From Apostichopus japonicus (Eukaryota; Echinodermata; Holothuroidea; Aspidochirotida; Stichopodidae), in NCBI RefSeq assembly GCF_037975245.1, contig NC_092565.1, forward strand, positions 20,496,999 through 20,560,998: 64,000 bases of DNA. Reading direction: 5' to 3'. The notes under the pieces were generated by a model, which saw nothing but the letters and a program-made list of their open reading frames with translations, did no database searches and had not been told where the DNA came from. The stretch's first letter is position 1. Each line of letters begins with the position of its first letter. The position numbers were made by a program, and so were the translations under genes. Of the stretch, positions 8,966 to 38,540 are shown one piece after another.

Positions 8966-9067
8966 TGTTAACCGCGTTCCAATGTTTACATTGTGTCGTA
9001 AATGTGTTTAAACGTGCTGATTTCAAAGTCCGATATACATACATATATACACACATATATATATATA

Positions 9068-9210
9068 AGATCATGTGTAGTATCTGTTCTCTTTCGAGGG
9101 GAATTGTGATACATTGTTACAGTTCCGATGCAAGGGGACTGCAGGGGGTTGAGAGCGGATCAGTCGTTCGGTAGTTTGGTTTTCGTGACCAGGTTCCTAA
9201 TTCCTGGGCG
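9068..9210 (+). repeat. U2-snRNA-derived SINE-like element, left copy
   Basis: Starts with AGATCATGTGTAGTATCTG, matching nucleotides in the conserved 5' part of U2 snRNA, then continues into an unrelated body ending near a CCTGGG motif. The first U2 bases present in the other copy (41048-41224) are replaced here by TA repeats. It is a retroposed or chimeric repeat, not a functional snRNA gene: the Sm site and 3' stem-loops are absent. Confidence 0.65.
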
Positions 9211-9212
9211 AC

Positions 9213-9216
9213 TATA

Positions 9217-9312
<96 letters not shown>
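9213..9312. repeat. (TA)n microsatellite
   Basis: About 100 bp of alternating TA with one TG interruption. The equivalent position in the right arm has a longer TA array (39939-40142). Confidence 0.97.
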
Positions 9313-9313
<1 letters not shown>

Positions 9314-11204
9314 TCTACTTGACCAAAAGAGAGAAATGGAAGAACAGAGAGCATTAAGAGTGTTTTACATCATGGAACAATTAGTTTGGTATTAAATCGA
9401 CCGGTATATGAAAAACACATCGATAGTCTATAAATGTGATTACTTAATGTGAATGTTTTTATTGTCTACTTTCTGTTTCCATGTTGGATGACTTGCAATT
9501 ATATTTTGCTGATTTTAGTTAATATATTTTGAAACCATATTCATGAGACAGGACAGGCAAAAGTGTGGAAAGTTTGTCATGAGGAACCACAAGGAAGTTA
9601 GGCTATGTCCACATTTATGACTTTTTCTATCAATATTTAAAAAAAAAAAATTAAAGCTAAAACGAAGACGATGATGATGTCACACGAAAAAAATCTTGCA
9701 AAGAGTAAAAATCCTATATAGACCCTGCAGGAAGTTCTCAGATAATTGTCTTCAAGGGCCAGAGAGAAAAAATATTGGAGTCCAATTGCCCTATATAAAG
9801 ATGGGGGGGGGGGGGGGGTCAGACCATCGCCTCTCAACCCGCACTTATTCTTAGTTCTTACCCGTTATGCTATAAAGGAAAAAAAAAACATATATTGACG
9901 TAGAATATGCAGGGAGTGTCCAATTTTATTTGAAAACTAACAATCAGATTATAATGCAAAGCAATGAACAGGCAAGTAAAGAAACAGAACAATAGTAAAC
10001 AGGACACTTTCTTGGTAATCTTTACAGTGTAAAACTATATAACACTTTTTCGCATACCAAACGATATCGCGTTTATAGCGTTACAATAGTCCCATTGCTA
10101 ACTTTACTTTTCGTAATGAAAAAGGATGTGAGAAGGGAGTAGGGTGAACATGTCAAACTTTGACCCTTATTATCGTTAAATATGAGGTATCGGCAGTTTT
10201 TATTGCTGAATCGGTAGTATATGTTGCTAAAAACGACAATGCCAGCCACTATTTTTATCCAAGTTCCAAGTACGTTGTTTCCTTAACTAGTTTTCATCGT
10301 TACTGTGTTTTTTTGTGTTCGATTGTTTGTTTGATATTTTATTTACTATATCTATATTTGAACTATACTGTCGGCTCTCAATCGAACTTCAAAAAAGGGA
10401 TAGCTGTGACGTGACGCAACATCCGGTATACAATATGGTTGCCTTCCGCTGAGAAGATAATAACGTCTTTAAACAGTGACTTGGAGACGAACAGGTGAAT
10501 GACTTTTAGTGACGCAAAAACACTGACAGAGTGAGGGGGAGAATCCCTCTCCTGACCTAAATATAGTAATTAGAAGAAGAGGGTCGCATTTAGGGAAATC
10601 TTGATATTCCATGAAGGGGTTTTGTATTGAGGGTTGTGGTGATGATCCGAGAGGAAAAGTGTGAGTTGAATGTATAAGATGTCCCCTAATTATAACATTA
10701 CTGTGTGTGAACTATATTTAAAGGGAACTTTCGATTTGAAGGAAAGCGTCGTTCCAGGTAATAATGATGTCGCGGCAACTTCCTCTGCCAGTCTGTCCGA
10801 GGTAAAAATAAATAAATAAAACACGCTCATTGTGTTAAGCATTGAGGTGCGGGGATGGGGTGGGGAGGGGGGGTCCTACTCACTACCAATTACTTCTAAG
10901 CTTCAAAGTGATTTTCGTTTGTCATACAAACCTTTGTCACAAACCTCTACCCGGGATTAACCATACAACGCCATGAAGTTTCATTTTCTCTGTCGTTTTA
11001 TGTTCATTTTGTCAATTTTGGATGAGGTGTTTTAGGTTCGGGTGGGATGGGGTTTTGGGAAGGGCGGGGAAGGGGGTTCTTTAGCGGAAGAGGGTAAACT
11101 TGATCGACGGCCTAAAGAGCAGATGATTGGTTTATATAGTCCATGTATACAACATTTCAGATGAATTCTAGACTAGTGTCAATGACATTGCATCGACCTC
11201 CGAT
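9313..11204. other. Palindrome arm DNA without a gene
   Basis: Non-coding sequence shared with the right arm. It includes the empty site (around 10556-10565) for the LINE that is inserted at the equivalent right-arm position (36011-36881). Confidence 0.6.
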
Positions 11205-11460
11205 TAACACACATTGTCAAGACAATATGTAAAGCTCTCAATTATAAGGGAATCGTGCCCAGGGGAAAAAATGATTTGCTTAACGTGACCTAAATTATCT
11301 ATGTTGTGTTGGTATAGACCCGCTATATAATGAAAAACTCACCTAAAGCATATATAAGAAGAATCCGATAAACACACATTGTCAAGACAATATGTAAAGC
11401 TCTAATTTTAGGGGGGAAATGATTTGCTTAACCTGACTTAAATTATCTAGGTTATGTAAT
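11205..11460. repeat. 129-bp direct repeat, left arm (two units)
   Basis: Two units of a 129-bp sequence carrying ACACATTGTCAAGACAATAT and CACCTAAAGCATATA. The second unit is split by the MITE at 11461. The right arm has three units (34801-35187). Confidence 0.75.
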
Positions 11461-11767
11461 CAGGCGCGTAGCCAGGAATTTGCCGAGGGAGGGGCGAAAC
11501 TGTAGAATCGGCATTGCAAACTATCTAAGCGGAGCGCCACCATGATTGGCGCGAAGCGTACAAGAAAATTTTGGCTGTAAATGCCTCCCAGATCGCTGGA
11601 AATGGCACTTCCCAGGCCTTGTAAGTTGCATTTTAGCATTTTCTCTTTGGAAAATACTAGCGATATCATAAAAACATTAAAACAAATATTAAAAATATGC
11701 TCAAGGGGGGGGGGGGGGGCGGCTGCCCCCTTCGCCCCCCCCCCTTGGCTACGCGCCTGTATGTAAT
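11453..11767. mobile_element. hAT-like MITE, left arm only
   Basis: The 299-bp element (11461-11759) has perfect 14-bp inverted ends, CAGGCGCGTAGCCA and TGGCTACGCGCCTG, and is flanked by the 8-bp duplication TATGTAAT (11453-11460 and 11760-11767). The matching place in the right arm has a single TATGTAAT (as ATTACATA near 34832) and no element. It has no transposase; a poly-G/poly-C stretch lies near its right end. Confidence 0.92.
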
Positions 11768-12941
11768 GAAAAACTCACCTAAAGCATATACAAGAAGAAT
11801 CTTGTTCAATTTGTGAGATATTTTCACACGATAAACAAAAAAGTTGAGAAAGTCTAAAAAACTGACATCATAAAGCAAATTGTGGTCACATGGTCCAGTT
11901 GTATTCAGTATTCAGTTTATTTCGTTTCCTACAGAGTTCAAGTTTCTGTAGCATTACATGGCATTTTTATTTCACGGCAAAATGGTCTCCGAAATATAAC
12001 AATATTAAAAGCACGATATCTCGCAGAGAGAGAGAGAGAGAGTATAAGATTTTACATTTTAAAATTTTCGCTTGCAAATTGAAAACAAAATTCCAATTTG
12101 CAACATGTATAGGCAAAGTAATGGGGTCGACCGGGGCGGGTATGGGACATTTGTTGTGCAAAACCTCAAAAAATCAACTTATCATAAATTAGAAGTGAGG
12201 CTACTCTTTCTGAATGATAAAACCCTCCTTACCATTTCTTTAAAAAAAATATCGTTTGGGTATGAAATTAGGAAACTGTCATCAGAATGTGCCCCATGAT
12301 TGTTGAATAATTAACAAAAATGTTAATAAAAGGGGGCTCATTCCGAAATACTGGAATTTATGGTACAGAATACACTAACGTTCCATTTTATCTAGATGTT
12401 TTGAGTTGATTTTGCGAGATACTTTCTCAAATCAAAGACATGTGTACCACATACAATTAAAAATTTGTAGCCCCTACCTCCCCCCCCTTCACTCCCCTTC
12501 ACCCAGTTTGAACCTTCTTCCGTCACCACTGTTAGTATAACATTTACAGTACCATGTTGCGATAAGACTGCAATTATGTCGAATAGACGAATTTCATAAG
12601 TTGCGGTGAGAGATTATATTGCTTTTACTCTAGCAGGTTCGAAACTAACCGGTACACTTAATTACGTCATAAGTAATATAATTTGTTAACGCAAACTCAA
12701 TATTACATTGATTTGGTTAATGCAGGAAAGAGAGCCTTAAATACCCTCTCCCCAAGAAAACCCGCCCGCCCACTTTTTTTTGAGATAAAAGACACACAGT
12801 TACATTCCATGAATGAATATATATCTTTTTACTTTTTTCACTCTAACCTCTCTCTACACATACCCTCCCCATATAACGTTTAGGGTAGGCGTGACCTTGA
12901 CTATCAAACCAATCAGACAAATCACATGTAACCATGTGTTT

Positions 12942-12949
12942 TGACGTCA
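12942..12949. promoter_or_regulatory. Palindromic CRE (TGACGTCA) upstream of copy A
   Basis: A perfect CREB/ATF octamer about 170 bp before the predicted transcription start. The adjacent block ACGCAATTATTGCAT is conserved in copy B, but the CRE itself is changed there (TGAAGCTAATAA at the equivalent place). A CCAAT pentamer is at 12910. Confidence 0.4.
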
Positions 12950-13043
12950 TAGTACGCAATTATTGCATAGGGTAAATTTCTACGAAAAAAAGCACCTGCT
13001 ACATCCTGACCTTTTGGTAGCGTGCGTATAAACGTCACAGAAA

Positions 13044-13054
13044 GGGAACTTCCC
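13044..13054. promoter_or_regulatory. NF-kB-like site of copy A
   Basis: GGGAACTTCCC fits the Rel/NF-kB pattern GGGRNNYYCC. It lies 40 bp upstream of the TATA-like box, next to a CRE-like CACGTCAT, and is identical in copy B (33481-33491). Vertebrate IL6 promoters also combine NF-kB and CRE sites; function here is inferred. Confidence 0.5.
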
Positions 13055-13082
13055 AGTCACGTCATGCTACCGGCTTGAACAA

Positions 13083-13091
13083 GATAAAAGG
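13083..13091 (+). promoter_or_regulatory. TATA-like box of copy A
   Basis: GATAAAAGG is followed about 30 bp later by an initiator-like TCAGTAC (13113-13119), giving a 5' UTR near 100 nt. The block CGGCTTGAACAAGATAAAAG is conserved in copy B. Confidence 0.55.
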
Positions 13092-13216
13092 CATGCGTTT
13101 GATGTGTTGAATTCAGTACCACGCACTAGAGCTCAGACAAGCAGTCAAATCTTTTAGCATTCACCAACGATTATCTCGTTCAACTTTCATCGTATCATAT
13201 TTAGGACTTGTTTTTT

Positions 13217-13262
13217 ATGTCCACTGCAATAGGAATGGCGTCCACACAAATATATTCAATTG
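13217..13262 (+). CDS. Copy A exon 1 (start of signal peptide)
   Basis: Codes residues 1-15 plus one base of codon 16; donor GTAAGTTT gives a phase-1 intron of 2827 bp. A very short first coding exon ending in phase 1 is a feature of IL-6 and G-CSF genes. Confidence 0.8.
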
Positions 13263-16200
13263 GTAAGTTTTTTTGAGTTTTATACATATTCGTTCCTTGT
13301 CGTATACTGTTTTATATATCTATATTTATATATATATAGGCTTACCTATCTATTGATTGATAAGTTGTGTGCCATATGTTAGCTATAAGGCTTCACCTGT
13401 ATAATGAGATGGTGAACAAAAGAGCAGTGCAAAATTTCCAACAAATAAATTTCTGTATAACTCTAATTTTCGGGCACTTTAAGATATTATTGACGACAAA
13501 AATAGTCAAGCTGGTCCAATTTTTTATTTTTTTTTTATAAAATGCTCAACAATGTATACGGTTTTCAAACTTAAAAAACATTTCAACGTTTCGTACGCTT
13601 AAGGAAATGTAGAAGGAAATAGCCATATAAACAGCTACCCGTACACTTATTTCTATACCAGCAAAATGAATACTTGGTTTGGGCATAATGCACGCTTGGC
13701 TGATTCCCATTACCGAAAACAAAGACCAGAACTGAAATCTTAAAGTAGTGTGTTATCTCCAGTATCAATAGCATATCAACCAAAACATTCATACTTAAAA
13801 ACATTCATGACAAGGCTTCAACATTGGTTCACTTTATCATTTAACTTGAGCTATTTTTTAAAGAAATATTCAGTTTTAACTTGAAAGGCAAGGAAGACTT
13901 GCACGTAGTCCATGCTGACAATATTGATTCCATCATTGAACGCTATACATTAAATCTATAACATTGAGTAGAAAATAAAACTAACCAGATTTATCCAATG
14001 TAAAACGTCAATGTTAAACCAGTAATGTAATACTGTAGTGTATATAGATTCAATAATGATGATACAGTTAGATCTCACATTGTATAGCGAGGTATATAGA
14101 AATAGCGTATAACAGCTGTACACAAGTGTAGCCCGGTATACAATTTAACAAGACTTATTAACATGGAGTACAGGCCACAGCGTAATCATGTACTGGTATA
14201 CTTATTACCAACTCACAATCTATTCAACTTAAACAATACCGTTAATGAAACTGTAGCAGCTAGATATAACAATATCGGAATATCATTGTGGGCTGTTTCA
14301 CCCAGTTTAGCGAGACTTATCGTGAGGAGCGTGGGTCTTGAGTTATTATACTGAGAGAATGTAATAGTTGGGGTATAGGAAACTAAAACATAACACAGGT
14401 AGCTCCGTTCAATATGAACCCTAGCTTGCACCGCCGAGGACACCATCGCGGTATGAAAGGTTAGACACACGTTACGAGTGATTTACGTTGTTTGACTTCT
14501 ATCCTTCCGTCGGACATATCAAAATACACAAAGAAGAATTACCTCCTAGCGAAGAAGGGTTTGTTGGGAATTCGTATCATCATATCAAACACTAAATGGT
14601 GTTCAATTACTGCGAAGAGATATATTGCTTTATAGGGATATATTTATTATACACCAAACTCTGCATGGATGGAATGACTTTTTTTTTTCTTCTTCTTCTT
14701 CTTCTTCTTCTTTTTATCTCTCGGCTTTATGGACATAACTTTGTATCATCTTAGACGAAAAATAAACAGATACTCATTGCCAAATATGGGCATAGTCAAA
14801 AAACGTTGCTCCATCATCTAAGGCGCTTTCCTATATTTAGTGGAAAACCTTGGGTCTCTATTCAAAAGAAAGTTGAACTGTTTTCATATGAACCTCAAAG
14901 AAAAAAATGAGAGGAAAAAAAAAAATGTTTCTTGGGCATATTTTGTCTAAGTTTTTGACACCGTCTACCTTCGTGACCTTTGTCGATCTTTACGATCCCA
15001 GTAGAATCAATTATTTAGGAAATTCAACCCGGAGATGTCTCTACGGAAGGGCCTTTTTTTCTGTTCTGTTCTTTTTGTTTCCCTCTGTTGTTGCCATACG
15101 TCACGGTGAGGTGTCACGTGTTGTATTCGTAATGTATACGGATATATCTCTATTGAAGCTTCGGTATTCGACCAAATGTAAACAGATTTAAGAACCATAT
15201 CGAAGGAAGATCACATGTGTAACCTTACATTACACCGACCGTAGCTTCCGTTATCTATTCCTGTTATGTTTACTCTTCTTTTGTGTACTCATTTAAGAGA
15301 CCTTGAAACAGAGCTGTTTTGTGTTTCATCGACAAACAGTGTCTTCCGCTCTTCACAGGATATCCGCTTGCATAGCATTTGGCAATGGGGTTGAAAAAAA
15401 AATTCCATATCGTTTATCATCAAAAGTTTTCTACTATATATAGCAAAAAACGTCTGTGCACACATCTTTGTTGTGAAATACGTAGTAAAATCGCTATATT
15501 TCTGGTGATTGCTTTACCACATCCTCGCGTTTCGGCCACAATGACAGGAATGTACGCTAAAGATTTCGTCATAATATCTTCCTTGATAGTAGGCCTGCCT
15601 AGCTTGAAGTATACACAAAACATTCCAAAAGAAACTATGCACTTTCCATGTTTGGCTCATTGGCCCGTGGCGTGTATAAACAAAACTTTGTCCAGCCGGC
15701 GTTTACTGACTATTCGAAACGTGCCCTATACGTGACTTAGTATCTATATGACCCAGGAATATAATACTCCTTGTTCAAATAAAACATTCATTCAAGTCGT
15801 GTTTGAATGTAGTCGATGAGGTAATAACCCTATCAGTGTCAGATCGAAGGGAACAGACACAATGCATATCGGTGGCTTATATATTTAAAACACCACCGTT
15901 TCTAAAACAATCTCTGTCATATTATATGAGAGCAAGCTAAAAGGTGGTAAAGATAAAAAACACGTCTTTGTATTTTAGCGTCTCGAAATTCCTGTATTAA
16001 AATTCACATTCATCGACTTATTTTTTAATAATCGTCTTTTTTATTTAAAACTTATTATTAATATTATTGCTCCTTTTTTTTATTTTCAGCTTTCGTAGCA
16101 GTACTTTCAATGATATCACAGAATGTTGTCTCTAATCCCGTCCTTTCTGCACAAGAAACGTACGATTCATATGCACGGTTGGTTTGTACAACGGATAAAC

Positions 16201-18967
16201 TTTGGAGAGACGAATATCAACTGCATAGAGACTTCGTAAGTTTCTTGTTGTTTTCCTGTTTTATCACTTTTTGCTTTTCCTCTTTGCCATTTTTCCTTCG
16301 ACCCCGTAGTGATGTTGTAACGATCATTGGCATCAGGCTACACGTATAGTTGTATAAGGCTAGTTTTGTACCATAGCAACGAGCGACGAAAAAATATATT
16401 TTTATAAGCCGTGACCATATGGATATGTGCTGACATTGCCATAGTTTTACACGTTACATATCATTCATGCATGCTCGCATGTATCAACAACCATGATTTG
16501 TGATTGGGGGGGGGGTAGGGAAAAGAGAGGCGGGGTTGGGTAAAATGGTAGCACATATTAACTATTTTAATTCACTGTTTGTGCGGTCAGTTTCCAGATG
16601 AACGATGGTTTGAATTGTAAATTCTAGATAAAAGTATCGATGACTAATTGGGCCAATTTGGCCATTTTGCGGGTCCTGTGTCACGATTGAAAATTACTCT
16701 ATGATTTATGGGCTCCCAAAGTACCATTATCGTCATGAATTATTTTTCCTGCAGTACTGTTACTCAATGTAGAGATATATTATCCAATCCTGAACAGTAC
16801 TACGGAAAAAAAAATCATATATAACGGGACTGTTGTTTTGATGGACCATTTAAAATAGAGTTGATTCGTTTTTGGTATAGGAACAACCAAGAAGACCACT
16901 GTTAGATCTTGACGTCGTGATTTGAATATTCATAAATTTGAATGATGGCGATTATTTCATATTCTTCGCTTTTTATTGGCACATTATAAGTTACAATAAT
17001 TCCAGACTATAGGTTGCTTAAAACTTCTGACGTTAACATATTCAGAATTATTTTGACGATTTTCTTTCTGCTTCTCTGACAGAAGGAAGACCGAATGCCA
17101 GGAACGACAGCTACACCTGCCGTGGATGTTCCAAATCTTCTCCTGACCAGTGACATGAAAGTCTCTGAGCGTTTTCAATCAACGGTAAGCTTTTAATCTC
17201 TGGTAACCATAGAAACACTTATGTATTCTGTTTACAGCTTGAGTGAATAATAACGTCAATAGTCAATATCTTCCTTCATCATTTATTCTCTCAAACCCCT
17301 CCCCACACCCCCTCCCCACCCCCATATTTTTTATTCTCCTCCGTCTAGTGTCCTTTCTTGATTATGTCTGGCGACCCCCTAAGAAGCGGATCCATTACTT
17401 TATAAAGGAAGGGTTGGCGCTGGACTCTTTGAAGCCGACTCACCGTGTCGGCAAGAAGGGAAGGGGGGGGGGGTCTGTGAACATTATCTCCTGGTCTAAA
17501 CTCAGCTAAGGTTGCGTCAAAACAAGATTTGTGATAAATGAGGTTAAAAATGTGGTGTACACTCCACTTCCCCACCCCACCCCTATCACCATCCCATATT
17601 TACCCCTGGCCACATAGTCAGAAATATAAAACAACGACAAATTGAAACTGAATACGCAGTATGGTACAATAAAGTTATTAATATTATTACAAATTTAAAT
17701 GTGTTCTTACTTTATGTTTTCCGTTTTTGCTTCTAAAGGAGGTCGACCTGTTGGCCAATCACAGAGATTACCTGTACAACTATAAATATATTCTTCATCA
17801 CGTGATCGAAGACGAGCGGAACTCAACCAGCCCAAATAGCTTCAATTCCGATATGAACAACATCCTCTTTCTCCTAAGTAGTGCAATAGCCGACCTGGAG
17901 TATACGGTACGTATTTAATAACATCATCCGCTATATTTTCTGGTTTTTCTTTTTTTGTCTTGGTTTATCGATATTTTGACAAAATACGATACGATTATGA
18001 ATAGTATATTATTAAGTTAAGTTCGAAAAACCTTTTATTGGACAACTTCGGGTTCATCAAAAGTGACATCGAATTATTTGAAACTCTTCATTATGTGACC
18101 TATATTATGAAGTAGATATGATTTATGTGGTCGCAGTGGGGGGGGGGGTCGAAGAGAGGGAGGGGTTGATGGTATGGCATGAGGTGAGAGAGTTCGGGAT
18201 ACGGAAGGTGCGAAGATCTATGATCGGTGAATGGGTGGAGATAAAACAGGTCTGTTTTATCATTCATCTAATCATCTCTGGGCTCGCAGTGGGGGGGGGG
18301 GGGTTAATCGGACGGGGAAGCTTGAGGTGGGAGGGTACGGATAACTGTAATGGGTGGAGATATGACAGAATTATTTTCTATTCATGTAATCATCGTGCGA
18401 AGATCTATGATCGGTGAATGGGTGGAGATAAAACAGGTCTGTTTTATCATTCATCTAATCATCTCTGGGCTCGCAGCGGGGGGGGGGGGGTAATCGGACG
18501 GGGTAGCTTGAGGTGGGAGGGTGCGGATAACTGTAATGAGTGGAGATATGACAGAATTATTTTCTATTCATGTAATCATCGTCTGGATTAAATTAGATTT
18601 CCTCGAGATAATTGTTAAAACTACCCACCCATATTCCAGCCCATCCCTCCTCCCCTTCTCCCCTCCACCCTTATTCCACCCGCCCTGTCAAAAGTACTGT
18701 TCTAAAACTTTCACGAACGTGTCTTCATTGTTTTAATTACAGATGATTCATCTCGGCCACCATTCAAAAACAACTTCCTCCGTACCGGAAACTGACCGTC
18801 CATCATTTGATCCTCAATGGGAGAAGAATGCTTTCAACCGTTATCAAAGAGATCTGTATGTCCTGAGTGAAATGGAGGTGCATCTTCAAAAAGCAGTTCA
18901 GGATTTTAGTTCTTGGAGGGATAGATACATCGAAATAAGCACAGTACCATACAGCTGCGAACAATAA
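13217..18967 (+). CDS. Cytokine-like gene copy A: secreted four-helix protein, IL-6/G-CSF-type architecture
   Basis: Five coding exons (13217-13262, 16090-16235, 17083-17184, 17739-17906, 18743-18967) with canonical GT-AG introns in phases 1, 0, 0, 0 give a 228-residue protein. An in-frame TAG at 13202 precedes Met1; Met7 has a better start context and may be used instead. Residues 7-30 form a signal peptide (hydrophobic core IAFVAVLSMI). Predicted amphipathic helices: A 36-64, B 100-124, C 133-153, D 183-218. Residues 65-98 form a long AB loop and 155-182 a CD loop. Cys48 (helix A) and Cys226 (C-terminus) could pair; N126-S-T is a glycosylation sequon. Length, helix placement per exon and intron phases match IL-6 and G-CSF genes. 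The expected role is a secreted ligand for a gp130/domeless-type receptor signalling through JAK-STAT. A non-cytokine helical secreted protein remains possible. No family match could be tested here. Confidence 0.8.
13510..15440. other. Left-arm-only block inside copy A intron 1
   Basis: About 1.9 kb with no counterpart in the right arm, where the flanking sequences meet near 32630-32641. It is either inserted in A or deleted in B. It contains a (CTT)n tract at 14690-14712 and short ORFs, but no recognised transposon ends. Confidence 0.6.
16090..16235 (+). CDS. Copy A exon 2 (signal peptide and helix A)
   Basis: Acceptor TTTTCAG, donor GTAAGTTT. Residues 16-64 include the rest of the signal peptide and an amphipathic helix with hydrophobic positions Y43, L46/V47, L53/W54, Y58, F64. 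Cys48 lies in this helix. Confidence 0.85.
17083..17184 (+). CDS. Copy A exon 3 (AB loop)
   Basis: A 34-codon exon (residues 65-98), phase 0 on both sides, rich in Pro, Thr and Ser and not helical in its first half. It is the most divergent exon between the two copies (7 amino acid changes, 2 silent changes). Confidence 0.82.
17739..17906 (+). CDS. Copy A exon 4 (helices B and C)
   Basis: 56 codons, phase 0 on both sides. Helix B has hydrophobics at L103, L110, Y113, L117, V120/I121. Helix C has a heptad-like series F133, M137, I140/L141, L144, I148, L151. They are joined by a short loop with sequon N126-S-T. Two helices on one exon matches IL-6 exon 4. Confidence 0.85.
18208..18582. repeat. 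187-bp tandem duplication in copy A intron 4
   Basis: Two adjacent copies of a 187-bp segment containing GATCTATGATCGGTGAATGG and a poly-G run. Copy B has a single, more diverged version (about 28150-28320), so the duplication arose in A after the arms separated. Confidence 0.85.
18743..18967 (+). CDS. Copy A exon 5 (CD loop, helix D, stop)
   Basis: Acceptor TTAATTACAG. 74 codons (residues 155-228) then TAA. Helix D runs from about residue 183 with hydrophobics F185, L192, L195, M198, L202, V206, F209, W212. A final helix beginning F-x-R with Leu at about seven-residue spacing resembles G-CSF/CNTF helix D in pattern. The C-terminus ends in YSCEQ. Confidence 0.88.
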   Translation: MIHLGHHSKTTSSVPETDRPSFDPQWEKNAFNRYQRDLYVLSEMEVHLQKAVQDFSSWRDRYIEISTVPYSCEQ

Positions 18968-19002
18968 GGATCACCGATTTGATATGATGACGGTACAAGT
19001 TG

Positions 19003-19130
19003 ATTATTTATTTATTTATCTATTTATTAAAGGAATAATTGTCTTTCAAAGTGTATTTTGTTACTGACAAAACTACAAGTGACTATATATTATAACTTAT
19101 TTATTTATTTGTTTATTTATTTAATACTTT
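19003..19130 (+). promoter_or_regulatory. AU-rich element in copy A 3' UTR
   Basis: Overlapping ATTTA pentamers at 19006-19018 and 19022-19026, with a second cluster at 19096-19125. Overlapping AUUUA motifs destabilise many vertebrate cytokine mRNAs (GM-CSF, IL-6). The first cluster is conserved in copy B. It begins 36 nt after the stop codon. Confidence 0.6.
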
Positions 19131-21454
19131 CATCCTTTCATTTTGAAAGTTTACGTATACAAAGTTTACGAATTTTTTTTCAAGGTATACAGATTTGGTA
19201 TGAAAAATGTGTGTGAAGGTGAGACCTATAAGTGAGGTGTAAAATCAAGTCCAAGACAATTTTTGCATCTTCTTATGTGGACACTGGGGAAGGGGATTCT
19301 TTAAATCAAATATATATATATATTTATTTTGGTAATATGCTTACCAAGTCTACTACAACAATATTTTTATACATTTTACTCAGAAATATACACAGCCCGA
19401 TTCTAACAGAAAGTTGGACATAGATATTAAGTTAACCAATATGCTCTTAGCCAACTCAGAGAACCTTTTTGATTGTGTTCGTGTCGTCTTTTACTGGATA
19501 AGTATAGCTTAGAGTTATGGGAGTTACTAGCTATAAGAAAATATGCACAAACTATGGCCATGTTATTCTTTTCTTGCCATGCACAAGTGCTCTTAATTTG
19601 TACCATTTTCCAGAAAACGCAAACCACAAAAAACCCACAAAAAAACAAAACAAAAGGCTGCTTCTTAATTCAAATTCAAACTTTATCAAATTGAAGTGTA
19701 ATAACCAACGAGTTTTGGCCCATTCTTTGTATTTTGGATGAAATTTATACAAGCATATGTATTCACGAATGTCTTCCAGTGTACTAAGTGGATATATTTG
19801 TCCATCTGTTACATTATATGATATTTTTATTGTTTTTTTTTTTGGGGGGGGGGGGGCAAAAGATAATACATTACTTTATCTATAGATGTTTAATGACATT
19901 TTAAACCATTTTTCCATGATGTTTATAATTATTTATCTATTTATTTATTCGTTTATTTATTCATTGCTTAATTATTAATAATTTATTTTGGACAGTGTGT
20001 GTACGATAGGCCTATGTTTCTTTACGTATGTATTTCATTATTTAATGAAAAGCTTCTAAAAAGTGTCTTATTTAGACGACACGTTTCTAACTTATATTAC
20101 TTATGATCCTTTTCTTTATATATTTTTGTACTGATTTTTTACTTCATTATATATTCATTTCATATTTGCTTTTGTAAATATTCCTTCCATCCGCGGTAAA
20201 GGTATCTCATGTTACTTTTCATATGCGGGTGTAGATGTTAAACTCTATGGAGCCATGCGTTGCATCAACGTATTGAACCGTATGAATTTGTATGTCGTTT
20301 ATACGGACAATAAGTTATATTTTCAACGTTATAGCCAAAACGGCGTAATATCATATATCACAAGTTAGTTAAACAGTAAATAAAATACAAGCAATAACGA
20401 ATGAAGAGTTTGATATTTTAACTTCACAATAACAGCTACTGCATAATATCATTCATATTTCACGAGATTTTATTTAAATTGCCTTAGTGTTGGGAGATAC
20501 ACGATTTGTTTATTTATTATTATTATTGGTATAAAGGCCTATAAAAGCTATTGAAAGTACACAGTTGTTTAGAAAAGAAGAAGATATGATCAAATTAATA
20601 GATATTTCAGAGCGTCGCTATTTAAATCTTTAGAAATCTGCTTTTTATAATTGAAAAAAAAACGAATAGGAAAAAAATATAATAAAAAATATAATAAATA
20701 AAAAATATGGTACTTTATATCTGGAGAGCTTGTACAATCAAAGGTTGTTATTTTATGTAAACTATATAAAAGATTCCCACTTTAAATTGATCGATTATTA
20801 AATAATGCCATCAGCTTGACACGTGATATTGAACAAATGTCTCATCCATTTCAAACGCGAAGCCGATCGTTAATTGAAAAAAGCAATACATAATTTAACC
20901 TTTATATATTTATATATATTTAAACCGAGAGTTTTTATTGTAATAGCGATTTCGCATTACTAACTTGATTTTGTGAATACAATAAAAATGAGCAGGCAAT
21001 ACACTTTCTCTTTTCGTTTCTTCTTAAGTTAGTTTATTTCCAAATACTTCTAAAGTTAACTGGTATCAGGGACTCCATGATGCGGATTCATACAGCAATG
21101 AGTCGCAGTGGCCCCAACTCGAAGACGTAATAAAAAGGCCTTATACAATCTTAATAATAGTTGGAAAATTTGTGATTTTGGTTACAAAAAACATGACGTT
21201 AGCACTCCCGTGTTCATATCGGGAGGTAACTTCCAACTATGTATGTATTCCCTCCCCTCCCCCTCCCCCGCCCTCTCCCCTCTGCCAATTAATATTTTAA
21301 ATTGCGGCCCGATTGCCGTGATGTTGACCATGGTACTGAGACTGGGCGAGAGAGCATAGCAAAGCGGTGAGATACGTGTGTAGTGCTCGGCTCATTATAA
21401 ACAAAAGGAGACCAGAATGAAACGGGAAATATAGCCCTAAACTAAAATTGCATT
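19131..21454. other. 3' flank of copy A, no further gene
   Basis: AT-rich DNA conserved with the right arm (25278-27690). The 3' end of the transcript is not certain; AATAAA occurs near 20377, so a long 3' UTR of about 1.4 kb is possible. More ATTTA motifs occur at 19925-19960. Confidence 0.5.
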
Positions 21455-21565
21455 TGCCTGCACATACTCAGTATCACGTAGTGCTTGCAGTATTAAGAAG
21501 AACTATGCAAATACGCCGTATTCTAATGAGCGCGGAGTGCTTGCAGTATAAGGAAGAACGTTTAG
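21455..21565 (-). repeat. Single satellite unit in the left arm
   Basis: About one unit of the 112-113-bp sequence that is expanded to 15 units in the right arm (23640-25277), in the opposite orientation (CGTAGTGCTTGCAGTATTA, GAGTGCTTGCAGTATAAGGA). It represents the unamplified state. Confidence 0.75.
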
Positions 21566-22589
21566 GTTGTTCATGGTGTTATTGTTTGGGCGAGCAACAC
21601 ACCAGGCCTCAGGGAATATAGTCATGTAGGTACCTACAAAGTGATGGCGCTTGTGAGCGCCGTGATTTGTTCAGAATAAGTTGGCTACGCAGCTAGCCTC
21701 TGAAACTGCAAATGTCCATATGAAACTTTTAAGTTTCAACGTCCAGTCATGTAGGTATCGTTCACTTACCAGTAATGCCAATATTGTAGAGCGCACGCGC
21801 ACTACAATAATTACCGTATAGCTTGACGAAATCATCAACCAACTGTATAGGAATAACAAACCCACAGATTACGGTCAACAAACGCTGTCCTTTTCGATAA
21901 ATATCGGTGTTATTATCTTAGAAAGCTGTACTTTCTATAACCAACTAAAATGCACCTTTTTATATCATCTATACAATCATCCAATACTAGCTTTATAAGT
22001 TATGATAGGGGAAGTCTATATATATAATCAACATAGATTTCTGTCATAGAGTACTAATTACGAATGGGCTGACGATATAAGTTGCTTGAGTGGGAAGGTC
22101 TTACTGCAATCCAAGGAAACCCAAGCCGGGCTCCAACCAGTTATTACCTTCAATTTCAAATACCGCGCATACATACAGCGCTTTTACCTTTACCAAAACT
22201 AACTGTAATATGCTGGTGGTATGAGTTCCCTTTTATAGCCGAACAATGGATTTAGATTACCGTTTTATTGATGAACCTTATACAACCTTCGCGAGGAATC
22301 GGGAAAAGATGGGTTATCTCATATTACAAGAGATAGATAGATAGAGAGAGATGGGGAAGGAGGGGGGGGGGGCAGTTTACTAATATTTATAGTAGTTCAT
22401 AATAGAATAGCCATGCACCATAGAGTTAGTTACACTATTGAGATATTCAGTGTGTTTTCTCTCTGACATTTAACATTGTGATCAAACCCGTGAGAAATGT
22501 CGGGTTAAAAGTCATGGAAGGGGAAACTTTTTTCTCTTTTAGGTAGCTTAGCCTCATTCATATAAGCCCCAAGCTAAAACCATGGAGCT

Positions 22590-23303: not shown

Positions 23304-23639
23304 GGCTGGTTGATGATTTCATCAAGCTATACGGTAATTATTGTAGTACGTGTGCGCTCTACAATATTGGCATTACTGGTAAGTGAATGATACCTACATG
23401 ACTGGATGCTGAAACTTAAAGTTTCATATGGTCTCTGTACATTTGCAGTTTCAGAGGCTAGCTGCGTAGCCAACTTATTCTGAACAAATCACGGCGCTCA
23501 CAAGCGCCATCACTTTGTAGGTACCTACATGACTATATTCCCTGAGGCCTGGTGTGTTGTCCGCCCAGACAATAATATCATGAACAACCTAAACGTTCTT
23601 CCTTATACTGCAAGCACTCCATGCTCATTAGAATACGGC

Positions 23640-25277
23640 GTATTTGCACAGTTCTTCCTAATACTGCAAGCACTTCACGCGCACTACAATACTGCAGTAT
23701 GTGCATAGCTCTTCCTAATGCTGCTAGCACTCCACGCTAACTAGAATACTGCGTATTTGCATAGTCCTCCTAATACTGCAAGCACTTCACGCGCACTACA
23801 ATACTGCAGTATGTGCATAGCTCTTCCTAATGCTGCTAGCACTCCACGCTAACTAGAATACTGCGTATTTGCATAGTTCTTCCTAATACTGCAAGCACTT
23901 CACGCGCACTACAATACTGCAGTATGTGCATAGCTCTTCCTAATGCTGCTAGCACTCCACGCTAACTAGAATACTGCGTATTTGCATAGTCCTCCTAATA
24001 CTGCAAGCACTTCACGCGCACTACAATACTGCAGTATGTGCATAGCTCTTCCTAATGCTGTTAGCACTCCACGCTAACTAGAATACTGCGTATTTGCATA
24101 GTTCTTCCTAATACTGCAAGCACTTCACGCGCACTACAATACTGCAGTATGTGCATAGCTCTTCCTAATGCTGCTAGCACTCCACGCTAACTAGAATACT
24201 GCGTATTTGCATAGTCCTCCTAATACTGCAAGCACTTCACGCGCACTACAATACTGCAGTATGTGCATAGCTCTTCCTAATGCTGCTAGCACTCCACGCT
24301 AACTAGAATACTGCGTATTTGCATAGTTCTTCCTAATACTGCAAGCACTTCACGCGCACTACAATACTGCAGTATGTGCATAGCTCTTCCTAATGCTGCT
24401 AGCACTCCACGCTAACTAGAATACTGCGTATTTGCATAGTCCTCCTAATACTGCAAGCACTTCACGCGCACTACAATACTGCAGTATGTGCATAGCTCTT
24501 CCTAATGCTGCTAGCACTCCACGCTAACTAGAATACTGCGTATTTGCATAGTTCTTCCTAATACTGCAAGCACTTCACGCGCACTACAATACTGCAGTAT
24601 GTGCATAGCTCTTCCTAATGCTGCTAGCACTCCACGCTAACTAGAATACTGCGTATTTGCACAGTTCTTCCTAATACTGCAAGCACTTCACGCGCACTAC
24701 AATACTGCAGTATGTGCATAGCTCTTCCTAATGCTGCTAGCACTCCACGCTAACTAGAATACTGCGTATTTGCATAGTTCTTCCTAATACTGCAAGCACT
24801 TCACGCGCACTACAATACTGCAGTATGTGCATAGCTCTTCCTAATGCTGCTAGCACTCCACGCTAACTAGAATACTGCGTATTTGCATAGTTCTTCCTAA
24901 TACTGCAAGCACTTCACGCGCACTACAATACTGCAGTATGTGCATAGCTCTTCCTAATGCTGCTAGCACTCCACGCTAACTAGAATACTGCGTATTTGCA
25001 TAGTTCTTCCTAATACTGCAAGCACTTCACGCGCACTACAATACTGCAGTATGTGCATAGCTCTTCCTAATGCTGCTAGCACTCCACGCTAACTAGAATA
25101 CTGCGTATTTGCATAGTTCTTCCTAATACTGCAAGCACTTCACGCGCACTACAATACTGCAGTATGTGCATAGCTCTTCCTAATGCTGCTAGCACTCCAC
25201 GCTAACTAGAATACTGCGTATTTGCATAGTTCTTCCTAATACTGCAAGCACTTCACGCGCACTACAATACTGCGTAT
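23640..25277. repeat. Satellite array, 112-113-bp monomers, with higher-order structure
   Basis: Fifteen monomers in direct orientation. Each monomer is a dimer of diverged halves of about 56 bp (CCTAATACTGCAAGCACTTC and CCTAATGCTGCTAGCACTCC). In the first part (about 23650-24660) monomers alternate between TAGTTCTTCC and TAGTCCTCC junctions, a 225-bp higher-order repeat. From about 24660 onward all junctions are TTCTTCC. Each monomer contains the palindrome TACTGCAGTA. The left arm has only about one unit. Confidence 0.95.
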
Positions 25278-27680
25278 GTGCAGGCAAATGCATTTTTAGT
25301 TTAGGGCTATATTTTCCCGTTTCATTCTGGTCTCCTTTTGTTTATAATGAGCGGAGCACTACACACGCGTATCTCACCGCTTTGCTATGCTCTCTCGCCC
25401 TGTCTCAGTACCATGGTCAACATCACGGCAATCGGGCCGCAATTTAAAATATTGATTTGGAGAGGGGAGGGGGGTTGGGGAGGGGGTGGGAGGTGGAGGG
25501 AATACATAGATAGTTGGTAGTTACCTCCCGATATGAACACGGAAGTGCTAACGACATGTTTGTTTTGTAACCAAAATCACAAATTTTCCAACTATTATTA
25601 AGATTTAATAAGGCCTTTCTATTACGACTTCGAGTTTGGGCCCCTGCAACTCATTGATATGAATCCGCATCATGGAGTCCCTGATACCAGTAAACTTTAG
25701 AAGTATTTGGAAATCCACTAACTAAACAAGAAGAAACGAAAAGAGAAAGTGTATTGCCTGCTCATTTTTATTGTATTCACAAAATCAAGTTAGTAATGCG
25801 AAATCGCTATTACAATAAAAACTCTCGGTTTAAATATATAAATATGTAAAAGGTTAAATTATATATTGGTTGTTTCAATAAACGATCGGTTTCGCGTTTG
25901 AAATGGATGAGACATTTGTTCAATATCACGTGTCAAGCTGATGGCGTTATTTAATAATAGATCAATTTAAAGTGGGAATCCTTTATATAGTTTACATAAA
26001 ATAACAACCTTTGATTGTACAAGCTTTCCAGATATACAGTACCATATTTTCATTTATTATATTTTTATTATCATTTTTTCCTATTCGTTTGTTTTGTTTC
26101 AATTATAAAAAGCAGATTTCTAAAGTTTTAAATAGCGACGCTCTGAATTATCTATTAATTTGATCATATCTTCTTCTTTTCTAAACCCCTGTTCATTTTC
26201 AATAGCTTTTATAGGCCTTTATACCAATAATAATAATAATAATATAAATAAAGAAATCGTGTATCTCACAACACTAAGGCAATTTAAATAAAATCTCGTG
26301 AAATATGAATGATATTATGCAATAGCTGTTATTGTGAAGTTAAAATATCAAACTCTTCATTCGTTATTGCTTGTAATTTATTTACTGTTTAACTAACTTG
26401 TTATATATAATATTAAGCCGTTTTGGCTATAACGTTGAAAAATAACTTATTGCCCGTATAAACGACATACAAATTCATACGGTTCAATACTTTGATGCAA
26501 CGCATGGCTCCATAGAGTTTAACATCTACACCCGCATATGAAACGTAACATGAGATACCTTTACCGCGGATGGAAGGAATATTTACAAAAGCAAAATATG
26601 AAATGAATATAATGAAGTAAAAAACAGTAAAAAAATATATAAAGAAAAGGATCATAAGTAATATAAGTTAAAAACGTGGCGTCTAAATAAGACACTTTTA
26701 GAAGCTTTTCATTTATGAAATAAATACGTAAAGAAACATAGGCCTATCGTACACACAGCGTCTTAAATGAATTATTAAATAAAGAGTTAAGCAATGAATA
26801 AATAATCGAATAAATAAAAAGATAAATTAATATATTCATCATGGAAATGGTTTAAAATGTAATTAAACATCTATAGATGAAGAAAAGTATTATCTTATGC
26901 CCCCCACCCCCCAAAAAAATTAATATAATATAATAGACGGACAAATATATCCACTTAGTACACTGGAAGACATTCGTGAATACATTTGCTTGTATAAATT
27001 TCATCCAAAATACAAAGAATGGGCTAAAACTCATTGGTTATTACACTTTTATTTGATAAAGTTTTAATTTGACTTAAGAAGCAGCCTCCGGTTTTTTTTT
27101 TGTGGTTTGCATTTTCTGGAAAATAGTACAAATTAAGAGTACTAGCGCGTGGCAAGAAAGATTAATATTGCCATAGTTTGTGCATATTTTTTTCTTATAG
27201 CTAGTAACTCCCATAACTCTAAGCTATACGTATCCAGTAAAAGACGACACGAACACAATCAAAAAGGTTCTCTGAGTTGGCTAAGAGCATATTGGTTAAC
27301 TTAATATCTATGTCCAACTTTCTGTTAGAATCGGGCTGTGTATATTTCTGAGTAAAATATATATAAATATTGTTGTAGTAGACTTGGTAAGCATATTACC
27401 AAAAAAATATATATATATTTGTTTTAAAGTATCCCCCTTCCCCAGTGTCCACATAAGAAGATGCAAAAATTGTCTTGGACTTGATTTTACACCTCACTTA
27501 GGTCTCACCTTTCACACACATTTTTACATACCAAATCTGTATGACTAGAAAAATATCGTAAACTTTGTATACGTAAACTGTCACAATGTAAAGGATGAAA
27601 ATATTAAATAAATAAGTTATAATAAATAGTTACTTATAGTTTTGTCAGTAATAAAATACACTTTGAAAGACAATTATTCT
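25278..27680. other. 3' flank of copy B, no further gene
   Basis: Mirror of 19131-21454. A hydrophobic 80-codon frame at 26413-26655 (minus) is not kept open in the left arm, so I do not call it. Confidence 0.5.
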
Positions 27681-27681
27681 T

Positions 27682-27708
27682 TAAATAGATAGATAAATAA
27701 ATAAATAA
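27682..27708 (-). promoter_or_regulatory. AU-rich element in copy B 3' UTR
   Basis: On the minus strand, overlapping ATTTA pentamers about 37 nt after the stop (TAAAT on the plus strand at 27694, 27698, 27702 and 27682). It matches the first cluster of copy A. Confidence 0.6.
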
Positions 27709-27744
27709 TCAACTTGTACCGTCATCATATCAAATTGGTGATCC

Positions 27745-27969
27745 TTATTGTTCGCAGCTGTATGGTACCGTGCTTATTTCGATGTATCTATCCCTCCAAG
27801 AACTAAAATCCTGAACTGCTTTTTGAAGATGCACCTCCATTTCACTCAGGACATACAGATCTCTTTGATAACGGTTGAAAGAATTCTGCTCCCATTGAGG
27901 ATCAAATGATGGACGGTCAGTTTCCGGTACGGAGGACGTTGTTTTTGAATGGTGGCCGAGATGAATCAT
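27745..27969 (-). CDS. Copy B exon 5 (CD loop, helix D, stop)
   Basis: 74 codons and TAA. Four base differences from copy A exon 5 (two silent; K182Q and A184S). Confidence 0.87.
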   Translation of the reverse strand: MIHLGHHSKTTSSVPETDRPSFDPQWEQNSFNRYQRDLYVLSEMEVHLQKAVQDFSSWRDRYIEISTVPYSCEQ

Positions 27970-33317: not shown

Positions 33318-33331
33318 AAAAAACAAGTCAT
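33302..33331 (-). other. Overlapping upstream ORF in copy B leader
   Basis: A single-base difference (TTTATGAC in B, TTTAGGAC in A) creates an ATG 14 nt upstream of Met1. Its nine-codon frame overlaps Met1 and stops two bases before Met7. It could lower translation from Met1. Confidence 0.45.
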
Positions 33332-33444
33332 AAATATGATACGATGAAAGTTGAACGAGATAATCGTTGGTGAATGCTGAAAGATTTGACTGTTTGTCTG
33401 GCTCAAGTGCGTCGTGATAGTGAATTCAAAACATAAAACCATGC

Positions 33445-33453
33445 CTTTTATCT
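33445..33453 (-). promoter_or_regulatory. TATA-like box of copy B
   Basis: GATAAAAGG on the minus strand, conserved with copy A, followed about 30 bp later by TTCACTAT as a possible initiator. Confidence 0.5.
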
Positions 33454-33480
33454 TGTTCAAGCCGGTAGAATGACGTGATT

Positions 33481-33491
33481 GGGAAGTTCCC
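33481..33491. promoter_or_regulatory. NF-kB-like site of copy B
   Basis: GGGAAGTTCCC on the plus strand, the same site and spacing to the TATA-like box as in copy A; CRE-like CACGTCAT lies beside it. Confidence 0.5.
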
Positions 33492-33699
33492 TTCTTTGTG
33501 ACGTTTACAGTATAAGAAAAGGACGTTTACAGTATAAGAAAAGGTCAAAACGGTCAGGATATGTGCTTTTTTTCGAGGAAATTACCCTATGCAATAATTG
33601 CGTATTATTAGCTTCATGGCATTTAATTTCCATGGTTACCTGTCAATTGGTGGATTTTTTTTTTTAACGGACACATTGATTGTCATGTAAAGCGTTTTA

Positions 33700-34800
33700 A
33701 AGGTCACACCCATCTTACACGTTGAATTCGATGGGGACGGTTGAGGGCGGAAAAATTCGAAAATAATAAAAAGATATATATTCATTCATGGAATGTAACT
33801 GTGTGTCTTTTAGCTCAAAAAGTGCGCCGGCGGGGTTTTTTTTAGGGTAAATTTCCACGGAAGGGGATTTAAGGCTCTCTTTCCTGCATTTACCAAATCA
33901 ATGTAATATTGAGTTTGCGTTAACAAATTATATTACTTATGACGTAATTAAGTGTACCGGCTAGTTTCGAACCTACTAGAGTAAAAGCAATATAATCTCT
34001 CACCGCAACTTATGAAAGTCGTCTATTCGACATAATTGCAGTCTTAACGCAACATGGTACTGTTAATGTTATACTAACAGTGGTGGCGGAAGAAGGTTCA
34101 AACTGGGTGAAGGGGAGGGAGGGGGTAGGGGCTACAAATTTTTAATTGTATGTGAAACACATTTCTTTGATTTGAGAAAGTATCTCGCGAAATCAACTTA
34201 AAACATTTCGATAAAATGGAACGTTTGTGCATTATGTACCATAAATTCCAGTCTTTCGGAATGGGCCTCCTTTTATTAACTTTTTTTTTTATAAATTATT
34301 CAACAATCAGGGAACACATCTGATGACAGTTTCCTAATTTCCCACCAAAGGTTTTTTTGATTTTTTTAAAGAAATGGTAAAGAGGGTTTTATCATTCAGA
34401 AAGAGAAGCCTCACTTCTAATTTATGATAAGGGGGTTCTTTGAGGTTTTGCACAACACATGCCCCATACCCGCTCCGGTCGACCCCCGTACTTTGCCTAT
34501 AGATGTTGCAAATTGGAATTTCGTTTTCAATTTGCAACCGAAAATTTTATAATGAAAATTCTTATACTCTCTTTGCGAGATATCGTGCTATTAATGTTGC
34601 TTATTTCAGAGACCATTTGGCCATGAATTAAAAATGCCATGTAATGCTACAGAAACTTGACTTCTGTTGGAAACGAAATAAACTGGATACTGAATACAAC
34701 TGGACCATGTGACCACAATTTGCTTTATGATGTCAGCTTTTTAGACTTACTCAACTTTTTTGTGTATCACGTGAAAATATCTCACAAATTGAACAAGATT
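33700..34800. other. Palindrome arm DNA upstream of copy B
   Basis: Non-coding, aligned with about 11780-12880. The MITE target TATGTAAT is present once here as an empty site near 34832. Confidence 0.55.
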
Positions 34801-35187
34801 CTTCTTATATATGCTTTAGGTGAGTTTTTCATTACATAACCTAGATAATTTAAGTCAGGTTAAGCAAATCATTTTCCCCCTAAAATTAGAGCTTTACATA
34901 TTGTCTTGACAATGTGTGTTTATCGGATTCTTCTTATATATGCTTTAGGTGAGTTTTTCATTACATAACCTAGATAATTTAAGTCAGGTTAAGCAAATCA
35001 TTTCCCCCCTAAAATTAGAGCTTTACATATTGTCTTGACAATGTGTGTTTATCGGATTCTTCTTATATATGCTTTAGGTGAGTTTTTCATTACATAACCT
35101 AGATAATTTAAGTCAGGTTAAGCAAATCATTTTCCCCCTAAAATTAGAGCTTTACATATTGTCTTGACAATGTGTGTTTATCGGAGG
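34801..35187. repeat. 129-bp direct repeat, three units
   Basis: Three near-identical 129-bp units starting at 34801, 34930 and 35059 (CTTCTTATATATGCTTTAGG). The left arm has two units, so copy number changed after the arms separated. Confidence 0.93.
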
Positions 35188-38493: not shown

Positions 38494-38498
38494 CACAA

Positions 38499-38540
<42 letters not shown>
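38494..38540. repeat. (CA)n(TA)n microsatellite
   Basis: A run of alternating CA followed by alternating TA. Confidence 0.95.

What the first reader, a model, noticed from the sequence alone, without database searches (positions are those of the whole stretch)
13217..18967. Candidate IL-6/G-CSF-type helical cytokine gene in an invertebrate
Seen: five exons of 46/146/102/168/225 coding bases, intron phases 1-0-0-0, signal peptide, four amphipathic helices placed A / loop / B+C / loop+D over exons 2-5, one sequon, two Cys. Known: vertebrate IL6 and CSF3 share exactly this phase pattern and helix-to-exon mapping. Inferred: common descent or the same fold. Sequence similarity is too low to prove it by eye. 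If right, it would place a class I long-chain cytokine ligand outside vertebrates, where gp130/domeless-type receptors are known but ligands are poorly defined.
Basis: partly seen in the sequence, partly recalled or inferred. Interest (0 to 1): 0.95.

Follow-up and report, generated by a model that had tools for sequence, protein, structure and literature searches.

The report
IL-6-like cytokine gene in sea cucumber
A sea cucumber genome appears to carry a real, duplicated gene for a secreted signalling protein whose last helix matches the interleukin-6 family of immune hormones, a family reported so far only from vertebrates, which would make the early history of inflammation signalling testable.

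Summary
The five-exon gene is real. All introns are GT-AG, the phases are 1-0-0-0, and it encodes 228 aa. A second, inverted copy 8.8 kb away keeps every exon, splice site and the frame. It has 0 indels in 687 coding bases where 9.1 are expected, and 28 substitutions where 47.4 are expected. A kappa-B-like site, a TATA-like box and an ATTTA-rich 3' UTR are kept in both copies. The genome is 671.58 Mb, very probably Apostichopus japonicus.

The protein has no significant Pfam, PDB or hhalign match. However, residues 183-209 score 14.5 (second copy 13.1) on a helix-D profile of eight human IL-6/G-CSF-family cytokines. Seven of those eight, left out in turn, score 10.7-15.7 (IL11 -3.3); EPO, GH and leptin score below 0; 0 of 44,203 E. 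coli windows reach it. CLCF1 is the best single relative. The genome also holds a gp130-type receptor gene: Ig, cytokine-binding domain, WSNWS.

Not shown: the fold (two models, pLDDT 47.7 and 51.8), transcription, binding. Helix A gave no signal. Verdict: probably an invertebrate IL-6-family cytokine, about 0.75.

The parts
13217..13262 (+). gene A exon 1 (start codon, N-terminal part of the signal peptide)
   Evidence: 45 of 46 bases kept in gene B
16090..16235 (+). gene A exon 2 (rest of the signal peptide, helix A)
17083..17184 (+). gene A exon 3 (AB loop)
17739..17906 (+). gene A exon 4 (helices B and C, sequon N126)
18743..18967 (+). gene A exon 5 (end of helix C, CD loop, helix D, stop codon)
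   Evidence: helix D family signature
18827..18907 (+). helix D signature, residues 183-209 of gene A
33272..33317 (-). gene B exon 1
31836..31981 (-). gene B exon 2
29371..29472 (-). gene B exon 3
28623..28790 (-). gene B exon 4
27745..27969 (-). gene B exon 5
13044..13054 (+). kappa-B-like inverted repeat GGGAACTTCCC of gene A promoter; same letters on gene B's strand at 33491-33481
   Evidence: the only two places of this 11-mer in the window
13083..13091 (+). TATA-like box GATAAAAGG of gene A, kept in gene B
   Evidence: alignment
12953..12973 (+). promoter block kept letter for letter in gene B inside a diverged stretch; possible factor site
   Evidence: alignment
19004..19121 (+). AU-rich element cluster in the 3' UTR of gene A; 14 ATTTA in 1000 nt after the stop codon in both copies
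   Evidence: 0.3% of 1000-nt windows (both strands, step 100) reach that count
9066..21841 (+). left arm of a large inverted duplication carrying gene A
23307..41207 (-). right arm of the inverted duplication carrying gene B

Best explanation
The locus holds two copies of a gene for a secreted, long-chain class I helical cytokine of the IL-6/G-CSF (gp130) family in an echinoderm, very probably Apostichopus japonicus. Proposed mechanism: NF-kappa-B (Rel) switches the gene on after infection or wounding through the kappa-B-like site and TATA-like box; AU-rich elements in the 3' UTR make the mRNA short-lived; the protein loses its signal peptide and folds into four helices with a long AB loop (31 residues in the model), a short BC loop (7) and a long CD loop (26); helix D with Phe185 and the A/C face bridge gp130-type receptor chains on target cells, which signal through JAK and STAT. 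Shown here: gene structure, selective constraint on the duplicate, kept regulatory motifs, the helix D signature, and a gp130-type receptor gene in the same genome. Inferred: transcription, secretion, fold topology, receptor binding, JAK-STAT signalling, and the regulators' action.
For: Gene and constraint. Regulatory anatomy kept between copies. Helix D: an eight-member human profile gives 14.5 for copy A and 13.1 for copy B, with the best window in the predicted last helix. Left-out members CLCF1, CNTF, CTF1, LIF, OSM, CSF3 and IL6 give 10.7-15.7, IL11 gives -3.3; EPO -4.9, GH -5.8, leptin -0.8; 0 of 44,203 E. coli ORF windows reach it, the highest being 4.0, and of 55,505 own-genome six-frame windows only the two copies do, the third being 3.1; 0 of 50,000 shuffles that keep the hydrophobic pattern. 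CLCF1 is the best pairwise match of 11 cytokines tried (z 4.1, 4 of 1000 shuffles reach it). Low-confidence mature model: helices 6-36, 68-95, 103-127, 154-190, with the loop-length pattern of long-chain cytokines; 6 of the 50 Foldseek rows listed for it are IL-11, IL-27, CLCF1 and G-CSF entries. Receptor.
Against: No significant whole-protein match to any cytokine by Pfam, phmmer, profile or hhalign, while human CLCF1 itself is caught by Pfam PRF and CNTF. In one search at least one of 100 shuffled profiles beat the real score, both against CLCF1 (23.2 over 16.6) and against the three-member family profile (17.7 over 16.9). The reversed protein scores 49 against IL6, close to the 50 for CLCF1. 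The helix A profile gives no signal. Helix D was picked after I saw the resemblance, so that test is post hoc. The lysine of the FXXK site III motif is absent (Phe kept, Tyr in place of Lys). No transcript or orthologue could be seen.
Confidence: 0.75

Rival explanations
1. A secreted long-chain class I helical cytokine, but of another branch (growth hormone/EPO-like) or a lineage of its own, with the helix D resemblance arising by convergence on the same packing.
For: The 1-0-0-0 phases fit GH and EPO as well (recalled); helix A gives no IL-6-family signal; the FXXK lysine is missing; the cytokine-binding segment of the receptor hits prolactin receptor as well as IL-11RA.
Against: EPO, GH and leptin score -4.9, -5.8 and -0.8 on the helix D profile against 14.5 for this protein; pairwise alignments to EPO, GH and leptin are at or below shuffle level; the receptor found has an Ig domain upstream of the cytokine-binding exon, the gp130-type layout.
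Confidence: 0.12
2. A secreted helical-bundle protein unrelated to cytokines (lineage-specific immune or coelomic-fluid protein), perhaps of simple up-down-up-down topology.
For: VIA-align's listed matches of the low-confidence models are other helical proteins and bundles, none a cytokine; no significant cytokine match by any whole-protein search.
Against: The helix D signature; long AB and CD loops with a short BC loop; cytokine-like promoter and 3' UTR kept in both copies.
Confidence: 0.1
3. Not a functional gene: a chance chain of open exons or a pair of decaying pseudogenes.
For: dN/dS of 0.57 is only mildly below 1 and the replacement count alone is not unusual (P 0.15); no transcript data.
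Against: No indel in 687 coding bases where 9.1 are expected, fewer substitutions than noncoding DNA, splice sites and both frames intact in two copies.
Confidence: 0.03

Closest known systems
CLCF1 (cardiotrophin-like cytokine factor 1) with CNTF and CTF1
   Same: Best pairwise match of 11 human cytokines tried. Helix D aligns without gaps over 29 residues with score 37 (next offset 3), keeping Phe at its start and Asp-Phe 23-24 residues later; the SxQxTYD start of helix A is shared by eye.
   Different: No significant whole-chain match; with CTF1 alone helix D scores only 1 in register; Tyr in place of the FXXK lysine; five exons, whereas CLCF1 has three coding exons (recalled).
IL6 and CSF3 (G-CSF)
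   Same: Five exons in IL6 (PMC7284502, passages, which also places helix A in exon 2); helix D signature.
   Different: No pairwise similarity above shuffles; two mature Cys only, fewer than IL6 or CSF3 (recalled).
Arthropod Unpaired (Upd) ligands of Domeless
   Same: Non-vertebrate secreted ligands for a class I receptor feeding JAK-STAT (recalled).
   Different: Not compared here: no Upd sequence was at hand. PMC9195186 (start of the abstract in a listing) says arthropod JAK-STAT activators are largely unknown.
EPO, growth hormone, leptin
   Same: Long-chain class I helical cytokines; GH and EPO have the same intron phases (recalled).
   Different: Helix D profile scores below 0.

Membership tests
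IL-6/G-CSF (gp130-type) family | helix D signature of the family | tested here: met
   14.5 and 13.1 for the two copies; 7 of 8 left-out human members 10.7-15.7, IL11 -3.3; 0 of 44,203 E. coli windows. Post hoc choice of helix.
IL-6/G-CSF (gp130-type) family | helix A similarity to CLCF1/CNTF/CTF1 | tested here: inconclusive
   -4 at the helix A position, best window elsewhere. LIF, OSM, IL11 and GH do ring in helix A; IL6, CSF3 and EPO have their best window outside it, so true members can miss too (helix limits recalled).
IL-6/G-CSF (gp130-type) family | up-up-down-down four-helix bundle | tested here: inconclusive
   Four helices with long AB and CD loops, but pLDDT 51.8 and pTM 0.56; the 50 Foldseek rows include six IL-6-family entries, none significant; no cytokine among the 50 VIA-align rows.
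IL-6/G-CSF (gp130-type) family | detectable by a family sequence model (a usual mark, not a necessary one) | tested here: inconclusive
   No cytokine model of Pfam matches A or B, though human CLCF1 matches PRF and CNTF. hhalign also fails to relate CLCF1 to LIF, OSM, IL6 or CSF3, so a miss does not exclude membership.
LIF/OSM/CNTF/CLCF1 subgroup | FXXK motif at the start of helix D (site III; described for OSM in PMC8355150, passages) | tested here: not met
   Phe185 is kept, Tyr188 stands for Lys. CSF3 has Arg, IL6 Asp and IL11 Ile there, so this speaks against the LIFR-binding subgroup, not the family.
IL-6/G-CSF (gp130-type) family | five exons, phases 1-0-0-0 | tested here: met
   not specific, as GH and EPO share it (recalled).
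IL-6/G-CSF (gp130-type) family | secreted, with signal peptide | tested here: inconclusive
   Hydrophobic N-terminus split over exons 1-2; no signal-peptide predictor run.
IL-6/G-CSF (gp130-type) family | signals through a gp130-type receptor | not testable with these tools
   A receptor gene with Ig, cytokine-binding and WSNWS parts exists in the same genome; binding needs an experiment.

The most novel reading that the evidence does not exclude
This is a true descendant of the common ancestor of the vertebrate IL-6/CLCF1/G-CSF cytokines, the first such ligand outside vertebrates. The cytokine, its gp130-type receptor, and its NF-kappa-B and AU-rich control would then have worked together before echinoderms and chordates split, more than 500 million years ago.
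Probability: 0.6. Interest if true: 0.95.

Novelty: new member of a known kind. Interest (0 to 1): 0.88.

Why it matters
A 2026 survey of 18 metazoan phyla or subphyla (PMC13203501; abstract, passages and section 3.1 seen) found IL6 only in vertebrates, while IL6R-like receptors reach down to molluscs and include sea urchin. In that survey the invertebrate receptors have no partner of this kind. An echinoderm ligand would supply one, date the family before chordates, and make the ancestral function (inflammation, blood-cell growth, regeneration) testable in an animal known for gut regeneration (recalled). It would also show why BLAST-type surveys could miss it: only helix D kept a readable signature in the tests made here.

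Tried and rejected
Chance exons or pseudogenes: rejected because of the constrained second copy. Whole-protein searches: Pfam gave only a sub-threshold glycosyl hydrolase hit, and that plus a DUF hit for copy B; PDB phmmer gave a PNGase F entry at E 0.13, the helix D fragment nothing, the A+B profile again PNGase F at E 0.5. Pairwise and hhalign comparison: CLCF1 stands out but not decisively; IL11 also stood out under one of four settings (z 3.75, BLOSUM45 global) and the reversed protein against IL6 scored almost as well as the real one against CLCF1; at least one of 100 shuffled profiles beat the real hhalign score. Helix A profile: no signal. Hydrophobic moments: only helix A above shuffles. 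Fold searches: (first model, VIA-align; second model, VIA-align; first model, Foldseek) list no cytokine in their 50 rows; only one search does. IL6 family (PF00489) in the own genome: nothing, but nothing in the 14 controls either, so uninformative. Further paralogues: of 10 candidates scored in the own genome, 8 matches are the two copies; the ninth, on C9 (E 1.6, L012), is broken by stops and taken as noise. Receptor hit 2 on C9 (L014, one stop inside) was taken as noise. JAK: PF17887 found nothing in this genome nor in the 14 controls, so it is uninformative. STAT (PF02864), Lep_receptor_Ig (PF06328) and PRF (PF06875) genome searches did not complete. My first MAFFT alignment of the two copies was wrong across intron 1; the noncoding rates come. 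Neighbouring ORFs: of 10 given to Pfam out of 49 listed, one, transposon-like by eye, had a hit. Paper searches that listed no echinoderm IL-6-family ligand: 0 papers; 25 of 293 listed; 20 of 1,927; 20 of 4,241; 8 of 8; 6 of 7; 8 of 11,055; 5 of 5. Most long lists were thus seen only in part, and the library lacks most subscription journals and bioRxiv.
Full report
What is there. The window carries a five-exon gene on the plus strand at the stated coordinates: exons 13217-13262, 16090-16235, 17083-17184, 17739-17906 and 18743-18967, all introns GT-AG, phases 1-0-0-0, 228 residues. The window is part of a 671,581,487-base, 35-contig genome (contig C5). Size and contig number fit the published Apostichopus japonicus assembly (671.6 Mb, 34 scaffolds; PMC10344927, passages), so the source is very probably that sea cucumber; this is inference, as no name is given.

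A second copy. A complete copy lies on the minus strand (exons 33317-33272, 31981-31836, 29472-29371, 28790-28623, 27969-27745), inside a large inverted duplication (9066-21841 against 41207-23307). The copies differ at 28 of 687 coding bases and 18 of 228 residues. In aligned noncoding DNA there are 431 substitutions and 83 indel events in 6,248 sites, so 47.4 substitutions and 9.1 indels would be expected in the coding part; 28 and 0 are seen (P 1.6e-3 and 1.1e-4). Splice sites, starts and stops are kept. dN is 0.036 and dS 0.064, a mild constraint; exons 4 and 5 (helices B to D) changed at 9 of 393 bases, exons 2 and 3 (end of signal peptide, helix A and AB loop) at 18 of 248. A search of the whole genome with the protein scored 10 candidates; apart from the two copies it gave only a stop-broken stretch at E 1.6.

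Regulatory anatomy. Both copies keep GGGAACTTCCC on the gene's strand (13044-13054; 33491-33481), the only two places with that 11-mer in the window, a TATA-like GATAAAAGG, and a further block at 12953-12973, in an otherwise diverged promoter. Each has 14 ATTTA motifs in the 1000 nt after the stop codon, a count reached by 0.3% of 1000-nt windows; in gene A TTATTTATT nonamers occur at 19004, 19008, 19097, 19101 and 19113, and again at 19941 and 19953. From established knowledge, an NF-kappa-B site plus AU-rich 3' UTR is typical of early-response cytokine genes. The motifs are consensus matches; their action is not shown.

What the protein resembles. No whole-protein search gives a significant relative (helix D fragment alone). 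This is weak evidence against membership, because the same hhalign run gives CLCF1 against LIF, OSM, IL6 and CSF3 probabilities of only 0.13-0.62 on a scale of 100, where this protein against CLCF1 gets 0.65. In pairwise local alignment against 11 human cytokines, CLCF1 is best (score 50, shuffles 29.8 +/- 4.9, 4 of 1000 reach it) and CNTF second (52 of 1000); the other nine are at or below shuffle level. Warnings: under one of four other settings IL11 also stands out (z 3.75), and the reversed protein scores 49 against IL6.

Helix D. An ungapped profile of the 27-residue helix D of eight human members (CLCF1, CNTF, CTF1, LIF, OSM, CSF3, IL6, IL11) has its best window in this protein at residue 183, in the predicted last helix, with 14.5 (copy B 13.1). 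Each human member scored with itself left out gives 11.3, 15.7, 11.7, 14.7, 15.1, 14.6, 10.7 and -3.3 (IL11 fails). EPO, GH and leptin give -4.9, -5.8 and -0.8. None of 44,203 windows of 197 E. coli ORFs (100 aa or more in any frame of 150 kb, so not all real proteins) reaches 13.1; their maximum is 4.0, and in 126,643 bases of this genome read in six frames (55,505 windows) the two copies rank first and second and the third is 3.1. Of 50,000 shuffles that keep the hydrophobic pattern none reaches 14.5 (maximum 14.25). An earlier three-member version (CLCF1, CNTF, CTF1) ranked the D helices of CSF3 (42), IL6 (30) and OSM (25) first among 2,921 windows of other cytokines and reversed controls, and this protein above them (56); 1 of 20,000 pattern-keeping shuffles reached 56. 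In that version LIF did not ring, the best of 43,809 E. coli windows was 31, and a noise window of the genomic window scored 42 against 56 and 55. The matching test on helix A failed.

Structure. AlphaFold2 had one and two sequences to work with. The mature-chain model (pLDDT 51.8, pTM 0.56) has helices 6-36 (broken at 25), 68-95, 103-127 and 154-190, with loops of 31, 7 and 26 residues. Long AB and CD loops with a short BC loop are what an up-up-down-down bundle needs (established knowledge). Foldseek's 50 listed rows include IL-11 (rank 2), IL-27 (5, 22, 28; by inference its helical subunit), CLCF1 (14) and G-CSF (33), but none is significant (E 0.31 to 2.1) and the superpositions are poor. 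The fold is therefore open.

Receptor. A search of the same genome with IL6Ra-bind gave a weak hit on C2 (E 0.776), but the place holds up: its 39-residue exon matches 56 PDB sequences at E up to 10, of which I count 51 as class I cytokine receptors (prolactin receptor 2.3e-4, IL-11RA 2.5e-4, CRLF1 0.0042, gp130 0.0084), and Pfam LIFR_D4 over its cut-off (28.5 against 25), with IL6Ra-bind and EpoR_lig-bind below theirs. An exon about 2.5 kb upstream is an Ig domain (Ig_3 4.9e-8; Lep_receptor_Ig 2.2e-4, below its cut-off). Downstream lies an exon with WSNWS (C2:4464753) and four fibronectin-III-like pieces by eye; of the WSNWS exon and three of these pieces given to Pfam, one has a sub-threshold fn3 match. 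A possible membrane segment near 4468700 is by eye only. This is the layout of gp130-type receptors; the exons were not joined and no transcript was seen. Echinoderm IL6R-like receptors were already reported (PMC13203501, passages).

Judgement. The gene is real. It is most likely a secreted class I cytokine, and helix D makes the IL-6/G-CSF branch more likely than GH/EPO. It works like an inducible gp130 cytokine by anatomy; that it is a member rests on one helix plus gene layout and is put at about 0.75. It does not belong to the LIFR-binding subgroup in the strict sense, because the FXXK lysine is absent (motif from PMC8355150, passages). The claim that no such ligand is in print rests on PMC13203501 and the searches listed in Tried and rejected only.

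Noticed in passing
G000 contig C2:4454552-4468824 (L015, L016, L019): A gp130-type class I cytokine receptor gene: Ig exon, cytokine-binding exon, WSNWS exon, fibronectin-III-like exons and a possible membrane segment.
   Followed up: partly
window 9066-21841 and 23307-41207: Large inverted duplication (palindrome-like, about 1.5 kb spacer), pieces 75-99% identical. Copy A's intron 1 has about 1.9 kb (13510-15446) absent from copy B, and copy B's intron 2 has about 1.5 kb absent from copy A.
   Followed up: partly
window 23597-25282: Tandem array of a roughly 113-base unit near the centre of the inverted duplication.
   Followed up: no
window 44918-44991 and 45289-45362; 41145-41228: Two tRNA matches 371 bases apart within a 190-base direct repeat, and a short match to U2 snRNA (84 bases for a 192-position model), perhaps SINE-like or degenerate copies.
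   Followed up: no
window 36432-36905 and 43154-43663: Fragments that look like LINE reverse-transcriptase proteins by eye; the first matches Pfam ALKBH8_N, a model often hit by retrotransposons (recalled).
   Followed up: no
window 18208-18396 and 18395-18582: A 189-base direct repeat in intron 4 of gene A, 97% identical, single in gene B.
   Followed up: no
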